Below, piece by piece: positions 56,843 to 60,094 of a DNA stretch of 64,000 bases (its first letter is position 1; every line of letters starts with the position of its first letter). Origin of the DNA: Lichenibacterium dinghuense (GTDB lineage Bacteria; Pseudomonadota; Alphaproteobacteria; Rhizobiales; Beijerinckiaceae); contig NZ_JAJLMN010000001.1 in assembly GCF_021730615.1 (NCBI RefSeq), forward strand, positions 3,855,501 through 3,919,500, in the 5' to 3' direction. The position numbers and the translations under genes were made by a program. The notes under the pieces are model-generated. The model made no database searches. It saw only the letters and a list, made by a program, of their open reading frames with translations, and was not told the DNA's origin.

Positions 56843-56897
56843 GTTTTCGAACGTCGGTCGCGTCGACATCGCCATGTAAGGGTCGACGTTCGAAAAC
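56843..56897. promoter_or_regulatory. 14-bp inverted repeat upstream of ParA-like gene
   Basis: GTTTTCGAACGTCG (56843-56856) and CGACGTTCGAAAAC (56884-56897) are exact reverse complements 27 bases apart, about 130 bases before the ParA-like start. A third copy of the inner ten bases is at 56732-56741. Such reiterated sites next to a ParA gene could be an operator or a centromere-like site. Confidence 0.6.
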
Positions 56898-57273
56898 CTT
56901 CACAAAAGCGGTCCTTAGCCTCATGCTAGGCAGCGGACGTTCCCGGACCAGCGGTCCCCAGCAGCTATCGTCGATGCGCTTGCTCTTACCCTACGAGTCC
57001 GTCTACCTCGGCGAGGAGGGTTGGTAATGGCGACCGTTGTGACTGTCATGAATATGAAGGGGGGCGTGGGTAAAACCACCGTCACCGCTCATTTGGCTGG
57101 AATTCTGGGTTTACAACCGGTAGGGGGTAAGCCGCCGCTCCGCGTACTAGCTATCGACTATGATCCGCAGTTCAATCTTTCTCAGGCGTACATACCTGCG
57201 AAGCAGTACTTCGCTCTGGAAAAGGCGCGGAAGACGACGCTCGCCATTTTAATGGATGACGGCACCGCCCTTA

Positions 57274-58332
57274 GAGCTATTTCCGATCAGGTGGGGTCGT
57301 AGGCATCGTAGCCAGCCGCGGCGAGGTAGTTACGGCACTCGTCAGGGGTGAAGCGGGTGAAGGCTTTCCGGATGGCGACGCGCAGATCCGTGACGGTGCG
57401 GGCCGCCGCTGTGCGAAGCAAGGCCTTCAGCTTGGCGAAGGCGTTCTCGATGGGATTGAAGTCAGGGCTGTATGCCGGAAGGTAGAGCAAGCGAGCCCCC
57501 GCTGTTTCGATGGCCTCCCGCACGCCTTTCACCTTGTGAGCGCTTAGGTTGTCCATCACGACCGTGTCGCCGGGCCTGAGAGCCGGGATGAGGATGTCGG
57601 TGACGTAGGCCAGAAACCGCGCCCCGTTTGTGGCGCCGTCCATCAGTTCGATCGCAAAGGGACCGCTTCCCCGCAGGGCCGCCGTGACCGTGGTGGTCTT
57701 GTAGTGCCCGTGCGGCACCGCGATGCGGCAGCGCTCGCCACGCCTGGCCCGGCCATGGCGGCGGGTCATGTTGGTGGCCGCCGCTGTCTCATCGAGAAAG
57801 ACGACCCGCTCGGGGTCCACGTCGAGTTGACCCTCGAACCAGTCCTCGCGCGCCTTCATCACGTCGGGACGGCTTTGCTCGGCGGCGTGCAGATCCCTTT
57901 TTTACGGCTGATCTTGTGGCGCGCGAAGAAGCGGTGCAGCCCGCTCGTGCTCGTGCTGACACCCTTCTCGCGCAAGCTTTCACGCAGCTCGCGCAGGTAC
58001 GCCTGCGGCTCCGCCTCGCACGCCTGCAGGATCATCTCCGCGTGGGCCTCGATGTTGCGGGAGCGCTGGTCTCCGCCCATCGGCTTGGCCGCGACCACGC
58101 CTTCGGCCCGGAAGCGGGCTTGCCAGCGGATCGCCGTCGCGATCCCGACACCGAAACGCTCGGCCGCCTGGCGGCAGGAGGAGCCCGCCTCAATAGCGGC
58201 CAGAACACGCTCGCGTAGGTCCGCAGACAGGGCTCTTGGCATCAGGGGCATCCCGCAAAGGTAGCCCTCACCGAATCACAACCCGACCGAAACCGCTACA
58301 CCGTCCCGAATCAAACCGGACGGAAACAGCTC
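57274..58332 (-). mobile_element. IS630-type element copy 2 (uninterrupted)
   Basis: The element is 1059 bases with ends GAGCTATTTCCGATCAGG and, inverted, GAGCTGTTTCCGTCCGG, and TA duplicated on both sides (57272-57273 and 58333-58334). It is the intact relative of copy 1 at 29211-31188. It carries a two-frame transposase gene read toward lower coordinates. Confidence 0.95.
57287..58251 (-). CDS. IS630 family transposase, two frames joined by programmed -1 frameshift
   Basis: orfA (57859-58251; start also possible at 58242) encodes the helix-turn-helix part (RQAAERFGVGIATAIRWQARFR). orfB (57287-57862) encodes the DDE core: VVFLDETAA, VVMDNLSAH and FNPIENAFAK. A run A6G at 57897-57903 on the coding strand lies in the Lys-Lys codons of orfA; slipping back one base there gives the expected family sequence RKKRDLHAAEQ... 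and continues in orfB. Such frameshifting is well known for this IS group. Both frames are undamaged, so this copy is probably active. Confidence 0.92.
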
Positions 58333-58956
58333 TAACCCATATCAGCTTCAGGTGCCGGGCAATCACACGCCCCCGAAAGTAGCGGATCTCGCAACGAATT
58401 GCTTGAAGCAGGCTCACGGCCCCGGCAAGCTTGACGTTGTTCCATCAACTTTGGATCTGATGTACATCGCACTTGGGCAAGCGAATACTAAAGTTGATCC
58501 AATCGAGGAGCGGTTTGAGAAATTCATAGATGAAGCACGTAAATCGTATGATGTAATTTTCATTGACTGTCACCCTGCCGGTTCGCTGTTTACGAAAACA
58601 TCCCTGACAAATTCCGATTTCGTTCTGATCCCCGTAATGCCACAGAAATACTCTGTACGCGGTATTGGTTTGATGTTCGCCTTTATAAAAGCTAAGAAAA
58701 AGGGAACAGCAAGCCCTCAACCTATTATACTATTTAACTCAACCGCCCGAGTTGGTACTTCTAGTGAGGAGGCGGCGATCCGTGCTGATCCAACTTATGC
58801 TGCATCATGCATGACCAGCACGCTCAAATGGTTCAAAGCGTTTAGTGAGCCGGAAGGTGGTAAAAATTTTGTTTGGTACAGCGGAAAACCCTATAGTACC
58901 CAGGCGTACTTAAACTTGTCCTCTGTCGCGAGAGAGTTCAGAACGAGGATTGGGTT

Positions 58957-59391
58957 ATGATAAAATCTCTTCGTTATAAGATGCTGTTGCGCACTCTTTT
59001 GTCAAGTGTTATGGGTTCTAGGCTGTCGAGCGCGGAACTTCAGTCTTTATCGGATGAACTTCGCCGAGGACAGTTATCAGACGAACTTGCCTACATGATC
59101 GACCTGATAAATAACAAGCTTGGAACCGATGACGAGACGAATTCTGACGATGAATTCTTTAAGTCCATCATGGGTTTGATACGGCAGCAGAAGATCTCTA
59201 AAGCAAATGTTATCAGCATTATGATGAGTCTTGGTGTATCGTCTATAAGTTCGTCGGCATCCATATCAACATTAATCAAAGAATTCCTAGTTAGCGCTTC
59301 TCCCGGAATGCGCCGAAAATTTATCGATGTTTTGCAATCATCGTCGCCAAGCGACCCATATCTGGCGGGAATATCAAATACACGGAGGTAA
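58957..59391 (+). CDS. Small helical protein of the ParA-like operon
   Basis: A 144-residue protein whose start overlaps the ATPase stop by ATGA. It has a basic N-terminus (MIKSLRYKMLLRTLL), an acidic middle (TDDETNSDDEFF) and mostly helical, Ser-rich remaining sequence. No family is recognised. A basic N-terminal tail on a protein paired with a ParA-like ATPase is reminiscent of ParA-stimulating partners, but this is inference. Its end overlaps the start region of the third gene. AT-rich codon use. Confidence 0.75.
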   Translation: MIKSLRYKMLLRTLLSSVMGSRLSSAELQSLSDELRRGQLSDELAYMIDLINNKLGTDDETNSDDEFFKSIMGLIRQQKISKANVISIMMSLGVSSISSSASISTLIKEFLVSASPGMRRKFIDVLQSSSPSDPYLAGISNTRR

Positions 59392-59392
59392 A

Positions 59393-60094
59393 ATGTCTCA
59401 GTTATTGGACGAATTGACGAAAGTCAACTGGTCGCAGAACATTACAACCTCATTAGCTCATGATGGGACTGGTACTGAAATAGACCGCGCCGCGCACCGT
59501 CTTGCTGTCTGGTCGAAGCAGCTTGAGACGCTCGACGCTGGAAACCCCGCACTGTCGTTCATACGAGAGATGCAGATTGCGATGCAAAGTTGCGGCGTGC
59601 TGATTGGCCTATGCATTTACAAGCAGTCGGCGGCGGCAGCGAGAACAATGGTTGAGACATGTTTATAATACAGTTTTTTCCGAACTCACCCAGTCGAACT
59701 ACGGACATTGGTGTCCGACCCGAAATTCTACGTTTCGAAGATGGAGATTGTGGAATTCCACAAGACTCACACACCGTCGTTTAGCGAATGTCAGGCAGCA
59801 TTTGGTCTCGTCGGGCGGCTACAGACTTGGTATTCTGAAATGTCTGCCGTGGTGCACGGACAGGTGCCGGGAGTGTGGAACGCACACTCGGCGATCCACG
59901 AAATAGCGTTCTCAAAGCCGACGCATGATCGGGCGGTTGCTGCGGTCATGAAGGCCGAACAGCTCTCACATGAGATATTGCTGTGCACCGCCGGCAAAGA
60001 GCTTTGGTCAGGGATTGCTCCGGATGCGAAGCTCGTTCTTTTGAAGGGTATACCGGGAGCTACAAAGGCAGCACTGGCTTTGGACTCCAAATGA
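59393..60094 (+). pseudogene. Third gene of the ParA-like operon, helical, with in-frame TAA
   Basis: Starts at ATG 59393 after GGAGG; codon 92 (59666-59668) is TAA, and the same frame then stays open to 60094. Translation across the stop is smooth: ...ARTMVETCL-stop-YSFFRTHPVELRTLVSDP..., so one 232-residue protein was interrupted by a nonsense change, or the stop is read through. The second half has LQTWYSEMSAVVHG, like the Y-x-x-x-S-x-x-x-H pattern of some HEPN-like all-helical proteins, though the spacing is not the canonical Rx4-6H. Function unknown. Confidence 0.78.

What the first reader, a model, noticed from the sequence alone, without database searches (positions are those of the whole stretch)
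56843..60094. AT-rich island with a three-gene ParA-like operon: candidate undescribed system, decayed
Seen: three genes in tight translational coupling (ATGA overlap, then a GGAGG site across the next junction), clearly less GC-rich than everything around them, encode a ParA/MinD-type ATPase, a 144-residue helical protein with a basic N-terminus, and a roughly 232-residue helical protein with YSEMSAVVHG. No ParB, replication or integrase gene accompanies them. Inference: a self-contained ATPase-based module, perhaps anti-phage or element-maintenance in role, acquired horizontally between the flagellin and dnaQ genes and now inactivated twice. The third protein's Y...S...H motif hints at a HEPN-like domain, but its spacing is not canonical.
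Basis: partly seen in the sequence, partly recalled or inferred. Interest (0 to 1): 0.8.

Follow-up and report, generated by a model that had tools for sequence, protein, structure and literature searches.

The report
Broken copy of three-gene ParA–RNase-like module
Three linked genes in this bacterium are a dead copy of a small module found intact in other bacteria and in some viruses of bacteria; it pairs a ParA-type ATPase with a predicted RNA-cutting protein and may fight phages by shutting down the infected cell.

Summary
Genes A (ParA-type ATPase), B (144 aa) and C (about 233 codons) form a tight, low-GC operon; A is split by an IS630-type element and C has one in-frame stop. The module recurs: 8 of 13 other gene C loci are intact A–B–C operons, in three sequence groups. 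Three Firmicutes phages carry the same order, two of them beside the integrase. B and C match no Pfam or NCBIfam family over cut-off. C keeps R-x3-[E/D]…Y-x3-[S/C]-x3-H in 14 of 14 complete proteins, as in DUF5677; a HEPN-like fold is unproven. B evolves fastest. Best reading: an ATPase-gated RNase effector for abortive infection or prophage immunity, dead here. The closest functional lead is Gifsy-1 STM14_3218–3220 in Salmonella 14028s: same order, similar sizes, ParA-like, no ParB, required for RtcR activation; its deletion raises phage titres (PMC9879122, passages). I could not fetch that sequence, so homology is untested. Structure models were too poor to settle the fold. ParA/Soj–HEPN pairs were proposed in 2013 (PMC3710099, passages), so this is a new variant of a known kind.

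The parts
57027..58960 (+). Gene A: ParA/Soj-type ATPase, split by an insertion element (pieces 57027-57273 and 58335-58960)
   Evidence: AAA_31 1.9e-11 and 4.9e-17 for the two pieces; 60-63% identical to intact homologues L011 and L002
57274..58332 (-). IS630-type insertion element between TA dinucleotides, two transposase ORFs (57859-58251, 57287-57862)
   Evidence: HTH_Tnp_IS630 2.5e-8, DDE_3 1e-32; similar inverted ends read by eye
58957..59391 (+). Gene B: 144-aa helical protein, open, fastest-evolving member of the module
   Evidence: 26-33% identity among four homologues against 61-71% for A and 48-61% for C; AF2 model of the L011 homologue all helical, mean pLDDT 58.6
59393..60094 (+). 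Gene C: predicted DUF5677-like, possibly HEPN-like effector, broken by in-frame TAA at 59666-59668
   Evidence: four close homologues are open across this position
56833..56907 (.). Imperfect inverted repeat (arms 24 nt, 83%) upstream of gene A; role unknown
   Evidence: of six other upstream regions, L011 and L008 show only a shorter 13-nt inverted pair and four show none

Best explanation
The window holds a dead copy of a mobile three-gene conflict module. Proposed working order in intact copies: A, a ParA-type ATPase without ParB, binds ATP and a phage, prophage or nucleoid signal and holds the module off or triggers it. B, a small fast-evolving helical protein, is the adaptor that sets specificity. 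C, a helical DUF5677-like and perhaps HEPN-like protein, is the effector, using conserved R86, E90, Y149, S153 and H157 (numbering of L011 C) as a metal-independent RNase, most likely on tRNA. Outcome: translation arrest and lower phage yield (abortive infection or prophage-encoded immunity). Shown here: operon identity, recurrence as a unit, near-constant motif, different evolutionary rates, decay of this copy. Inferred: RNase activity, tRNA target, roles of A and B, anti-phage purpose.
For: Intact A-B-C operons at 8 of 13 other gene C loci (the Methylosinus locus was found through B, the rest through C). In 14 gene C genomes the ATPase profile, built from those 8 triads and the window pieces, scores them above 340 bits as expected; only one other full-length ATPase exceeds 130 bits (G1440:C11, 184 bits, neighbourhood not examined). 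Module GC is 0.46-0.52 against 0.55-0.71 in 2-kb flanks at 8 of 8 loci, except one side of L008 at 0.46. Same triad in Lactococcus phage PLg-TB25, Lactobacillus phage LF1 (next to integrase) and Streptococcus phage Javan1 (between repressor and integrase; B unannotated). The PLg-TB25 third protein scores 19.7 bits to the C profile, 0 of 1000 shuffles as high. Motif in 14 of 14 complete C proteins, 2-15 of 500 shuffles each. DUF5677 is the recurrent sub-threshold Pfam hit, 6 of 13 rows, next best 2; R, E (R-x3-E) and H are invariant in 7 DUF5677 proteins fetched. pN 0.20-0.27 for A and 0.26-0.35 for C with pS 0.76 or more. Published: deleting STM14_3218-3220 lowers RtcR-dependent expression 50-fold and raises Gifsy titres 2-4 fold (PMC9879122, passages); DNA damage in 14028s causes tRNA cleavage, mostly in the anticodon loop, leaving cyclic phosphate, and the authors suggest a prophage-encoded endonuclease as one possibility (PMC7790460, passages).
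Against: The HEPN Rx4-6H motif is not conserved: it occurs in 3 of 12 rows that cover the site (L011, L032, L033), not in the window copy or the three phage proteins. Profile comparison of C with DUF5677 is not significant (4% probability); with HEPN_MAE_28990 0.1%. The C model is poor (mean pLDDT 48.5) and Foldseek gave 0 hits at E <= 0.001. PADLOC gave only weak isolated hits for B and C. LF1 and Javan1 C score weakly to the profile (3 and 9 of 1000 shuffles as high). The motif pattern was written after seeing the alignments. The Gifsy-1 link rests on order, similar sizes and ParA similarity, not on sequence I compared; the authors found no domain in STM14_3219 or 3220, their Tn5 hits in 3218 may be polar, they found HEPN in another gene (STM14_3211) whose deletion had no effect, and rtcR deletion did not change phage titre.
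Confidence: 0.55

Rival explanations
1. A segregation or maintenance cassette: A is a partition ATPase, B its centromere-binding partner, C an accessory that stabilises an island or phage-plasmid.
For: A is clearly ParA/Soj-type with conserved Walker motifs; B has the size of small partition partners (recalled); many phage records hold ParA-like genes.
Against: No direct repeats of 12 nt or more upstream of A in 7 of 7 regions searched, L029 and L031 not included. The chromosomal loci looked at show no obvious replication genes (by eye). In 72,556 plasmid records B (one search) and C (four searches) had no match, but these see only close relatives and A was not searched there. A third gene with a near-constant R/E/Y/S/H motif is not part of par loci as I know them.
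Confidence: 0.15
2. A toxin-antitoxin system in the strict sense: C is an RNase toxin, A (or A plus B) the antitoxin, kept as a selfish element rather than for phage defence.
For: Proposed in these terms for ParA/Soj plus HEPN MAE_18760 pairs (PMC3710099, passages). Decay in the window, L028, L030 and L032 fits a costly element.
Against: Three genes, not two. An intact C persists beside a broken or truncated A in L028 and L032, which is odd if A is the only restraint. Phage copies beside integrase, and higher Gifsy titres on deletion, point to immunity. The two roles overlap and cannot be separated by sequence.
Confidence: 0.2
3. C is not an enzyme: its conserved residues are structural, and the module regulates prophage induction or positions a cellular complex, as orphan ParA proteins can.
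For: No significant fold or family match for C; a positioning role for orphan ParA is stated in PMC9879122 (passages).
Against: R86 and H157 are invariant and Y149 and S153 nearly so at 10-23% identity to the first sequence, which is more typical of an active or binding site.
Confidence: 0.1

Closest known systems
Gifsy-1 prophage region STM14_3218-3220 (S. Typhimurium 14028s; PMC9879122, abstract and passages)
   Same: ParA-like ATPase first, then two unknown genes; 840, 309 and 663 bp against our A 276-318 aa, B 113-179 aa, C 226-251 aa; no ParB; variable immunity region of a prophage
   Different: Sequence homology not tested here. Its B and C are slightly shorter than any of ours. It is functional and SOS-linked; ours is chromosomal, not among prophage genes, and broken
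ParA/Soj-HEPN (MAE_18760 family) dyad proposed as toxin-antitoxin (PMC3710099, passages)
   Same: ParA/Soj ATPase next to a small HEPN-type protein
   Different: Two genes rather than three; the survey lists the catalytic motif as present there, while it is not conserved here; no PF18737 hit in Pfam scans of C and no support in profile comparison with three PF18737 proteins, none of which stood beside ParA
DUF5677 (PF18928)
   Same: R-x3-E and Y-x3-[S/C]-x3-H signature; recurrent sub-threshold hit, 6 of 13 rows
   Different: All hits far below the curated cut-off; profile comparison not significant
ParA/Soj/ParF partition ATPases
   Same: P-loop KGGVGKT, DxDPQ, overall profile
   Different: No recognised ParB, no repeat array upstream, scores far below NCBIfam equivalog cut-offs for partition ATPases

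Membership tests
ParA/MinD-type P-loop ATPases | Deviant Walker A (KGGVGKT) and DxDPQ motif | tested here: met
   one homologue (L029) has KGGVAKT
Plasmid/chromosome ParAB partition system | ParB or other adjacent DNA-binding partner plus parS/iteron site | tested here: not met
   no recognised ParB family in the B and C proteins scanned; no direct repeats upstream in 7 of 7 regions. A wholly novel B-type partner cannot be excluded
DUF5677 | Score above Pfam curated cut-off (27.1 bits) | tested here: not met
   best 14.3 bits; 6 of 13 rows sub-threshold; none of three phage C proteins
DUF5677 | R-x3-E and H invariant in the seven members fetched | tested here: met
   D replaces E in L032 and L033
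HEPN RNases | Conserved Rx4-6H motif | tested here: not met
   H157 conserved, but an R 5-7 residues before it is seen in only 3 of 12 rows (L011, L032, L033) and none of three phage proteins; R86 as substitute is only proposed
HEPN RNases | Helical-bundle HEPN fold | tested here: inconclusive
   nearly all-helical model, mean pLDDT 48.5; 0 Foldseek matches at E <= 0.001
Known anti-phage systems in PADLOC 2.0.0 | Convincing match of system proteins to PADLOC models | tested here: not met
   best for C 0.0023 and 0.0044, one member each; A only a P-loop stretch at 0.00017
Gifsy-1 STM14_3218-3220 type | Sequence homology of all three proteins | not tested
   sequence not obtained; it was not among rows listed by ATPase searches of phages, which show only part of the hits
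Gifsy-1 STM14_3218-3220 type | Gene order and sizes | tested here: inconclusive
   order fits; sizes are close, but its B (309 bp) and C (663 bp) fall just below our ranges

The most novel reading that the evidence does not exclude
A widespread, unnamed system, a ParA-gated tRNA anticodon nuclease, carried by temperate phages of Firmicutes and enterobacteria and moved as a 2-kb cassette among Alphaproteobacteria. Its third protein uses a rearranged HEPN-type site (R86 with H157). It would be the missing nuclease that makes the tRNA fragments switching on RtcR in Salmonella 14028s.
Probability: 0.35. Interest if true: 0.82.

Novelty: new variant of a known kind. Interest (0 to 1): 0.6.

Why it matters
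Two published papers leave open which enzyme cuts tRNA when strain 14028s suffers DNA damage and how three prophage genes of unknown function act. If the triad described here is the same kind, it gives a concrete candidate: the third protein, with named residues to test, and intact copies from other hosts to test it in. It would also give orphan ParA ATPases a role in phage conflict without ParB. For this genome it explains an odd low-GC island as a twice-broken module.

Tried and rejected
Searching B and C in plasmids and phages by tblastn gave nothing (B; C), and four viral-contig scans, three with C and one with A, found no relative. The phage triads appeared only through the ATPase, so those negatives mean low sensitivity, not absence. 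One family-scan hit to gene B (L003) was a chance match antisense to a long ORF. The genome-contig scan gave two loci. Structure models from 3-4 sequences were too weak. I suspected a resolvase site at the inverted repeat 56833-56907; the pattern was absent from the 16 loci then held. A relation of C to HEPN_MAE_28990 was tested and not supported; the control comparison of DUF5677 with that family was also negative, so the test is weak. Phage ParA neighbourhoods without a triad: ST160, a Clostridioides phage, Cormatin. In all I opened 6 phage neighbourhoods; the ATPase searches had 131, 164 and 60 records with a hit. L034 (37-residue match) was dropped as spurious; L033 lies at a contig end and cannot be judged. 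The motif pattern was written after seeing the alignments, so its 14 of 14 is partly circular; in L015 the script reported an earlier R, but the aligned R is also followed by x3-E. Papers where a term search led nowhere, passages only: PMC7159879, PMC10853773, PMC9519451, PMC13092281, PMC5379612.

Full report
What is in the window. Gene A (57027-58960) is a ParA-type ATPase cut by an IS630-type element between TA dinucleotides; its pieces match AAA_31. Gene B (58957-59391) is open. Gene C (59393-60094) has one in-frame TAA.

It is a real module. Gene B found a 34% match in G042, which is Methylosinus sporium, where A, B and C stand intact in the same order. Profiles of C then gave matches in 3 of 397 genomes of the order, 2 of 385 of the class, 3 of 398 of the phylum, 2 of 18 of one genus, 1 of 4 of one family and 8 of 265 of the genus reached through G332. 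The counts include our own genome, and 26 and 56 overlap. One of the last eight, G1477, has a contig of the same length as the Bradyrhizobium pachyrhizi contig (L011), so I take them as one. With Methylosinus this makes 13 places besides the window. Eight are intact triads (L007, L008, L010, L011, L015, L016, L029, L031). Three are decayed: L028 has the ATPase broken, L030 has C split and no ATPase, L032 has an IS3-type transposase gene after an ATPase stub. One is cut by a contig end (L033) and one is a 37-residue, probably spurious match (L034). In 14 genomes searched with an ATPase profile the eight triad ATPases score above 340 bits, as they must since the profile was built from them; only one other full-length hit exceeds 130 bits (G1440:C11, 184 bits), and I did not examine its neighbourhood.

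The groups. The C proteins fall into four sequence groups at roughly 15-22% identity to L011 C, three of them with intact triads. R86, H101, E104, Y149, S153 and H157 are nearly invariant among the chromosomal ones. When phage proteins are added, R86 and H157 stay invariant and Y149 and S153 nearly so. B is the fast partner: 26-33% identity among four operons in which A shows 61-71% and C 48-61%. Synonymous sites are saturated, so I give no dN/dS; pN is 0.20-0.27 for A, 0.48-0.56 for B and 0.26-0.35 for C, with pS from 0.75 to 0.97.

Context. The module has lower GC than its flanks in all eight intact loci, apart from one side of L008. Seven of seven upstream regions searched lack direct repeats of 12 nt or more. 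L008 lies beside a protein with a GHKL ATPase domain over cut-off and an HSDR_N-like stretch below cut-off, for which PADLOC gave nothing. L011 lies near an integrase-like gene, a resolvase, an ImmA/IrrE protein that matches PADLOC RmrA models (9.2e-20) and a weak Aga_SIR2 match. The other intact loci were only read by eye or tested in part and show no clear defence island. In sister species G013 the matching flanks lie about 520 bp apart instead of 3.7 kb.

Phages. ATPase searches led to Lactococcus phage PLg-TB25, Lactobacillus phage LF1 and Streptococcus phage Javan1, each with A-B-C in order and tightly packed; in Javan1 gene B is unannotated. LF1 and Javan1 carry the triad beside the integrase; the PLg-TB25 stretch has only hypothetical annotations. 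The third protein of PLg-TB25 matches the C profile (19.7 bits, 0 of 1000 shuffles); those of LF1 and Javan1 match weakly (3 and 9 of 1000) but carry the motif. The B proteins of the phages resemble each other weakly (PLg-TB25 with LF1 2e-4, with Javan1 about 4e-4, LF1 with Javan1 not significant) and do not match the chromosomal B profile significantly. Three other phage ParA neighbourhoods had no triad.

What C may be. No Pfam family passes its cut-off, but DUF5677 recurs below it in 6 of 13 rows, the next family in 2. Seven DUF5677 proteins share invariant R, E (R-x3-E) and H with C. Profile comparison is not significant, and the folding model is too poor to decide. The HEPN motif Rx4-6H is not conserved; three of 12 rows happen to have it (L011, L032, L033). 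The 2013 HEPN survey notes families that lack a canonical residue and may use another conserved one (PMC3710099, passages), which is the idea I apply to R86; this is inference.

Function by analogy. [quoted passage not shown] Their deletion lowers RtcR-dependent expression 50-fold and raises phage titres 2-4 fold. PMC7790460 (passages) reports that DNA damage in S. Typhimurium, mostly studied in 14028s, leads to tRNA cleavage, mainly in the anticodon loop, leaving cyclic-phosphate ends, and names prophage endonucleases as one possibility. If the Gifsy-1 genes are the same module, C is the obvious candidate nuclease. I could not compare the sequences. A search for the locus tag found only that one paper. 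Searches pairing ParA with HEPN and phage defence or toxin terms (open-licence papers; most listed papers were not opened) turned up no description of this triad other than the two leads above.

Verdict. The finding is a dead copy of a real, recurring and apparently unnamed three-gene module. The best-supported reading is an ATPase-gated RNase-like effector used in phage-host conflict. That the module exists is near certain. The RNase role and the tRNA target are hypotheses with a clear test.

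Noticed in passing
window 57287-58251: The IS630-type element has two overlapping transposase ORFs with a run of A (on its coding strand) near their junction, which may be programmed frameshifting rather than decay.
   Followed up: no
L055 3902-4243 (Streptococcus phage Javan1): Gene B of the triad is unannotated in the public record, overlapping the ATPase gene.
   Followed up: yes
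L056 4341-5042 (Lactobacillus phage LF1): The gene C homologue is annotated as carboxypeptidase D-like protein; the Pfam scan here gave no support for that.
   Followed up: partly
L057 2995-4068 (Salmonella phage ST160): A lone ParA-like gene sits in the immunity region between the repressor side and the antiterminator gene, without B or C.
   Followed up: partly
window 54664-56646 against L037: In sister species G013 the two matching blocks left of the island lie about 300 bp apart instead of 1.3 kb, so the flagellin-like gene seems to be missing there too; the spot looks variable.
   Followed up: partly
G1440:C11:243348-244199: An ATPase of intermediate score (184 bits) outside any examined triad.
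   Followed up: no
L008 10191-12044: A 617-aa protein with a GHKL ATPase domain and a weak HSDR_N-like stretch next to an intact triad; the 2-kb flank that holds it has the same low GC.
   Followed up: partly
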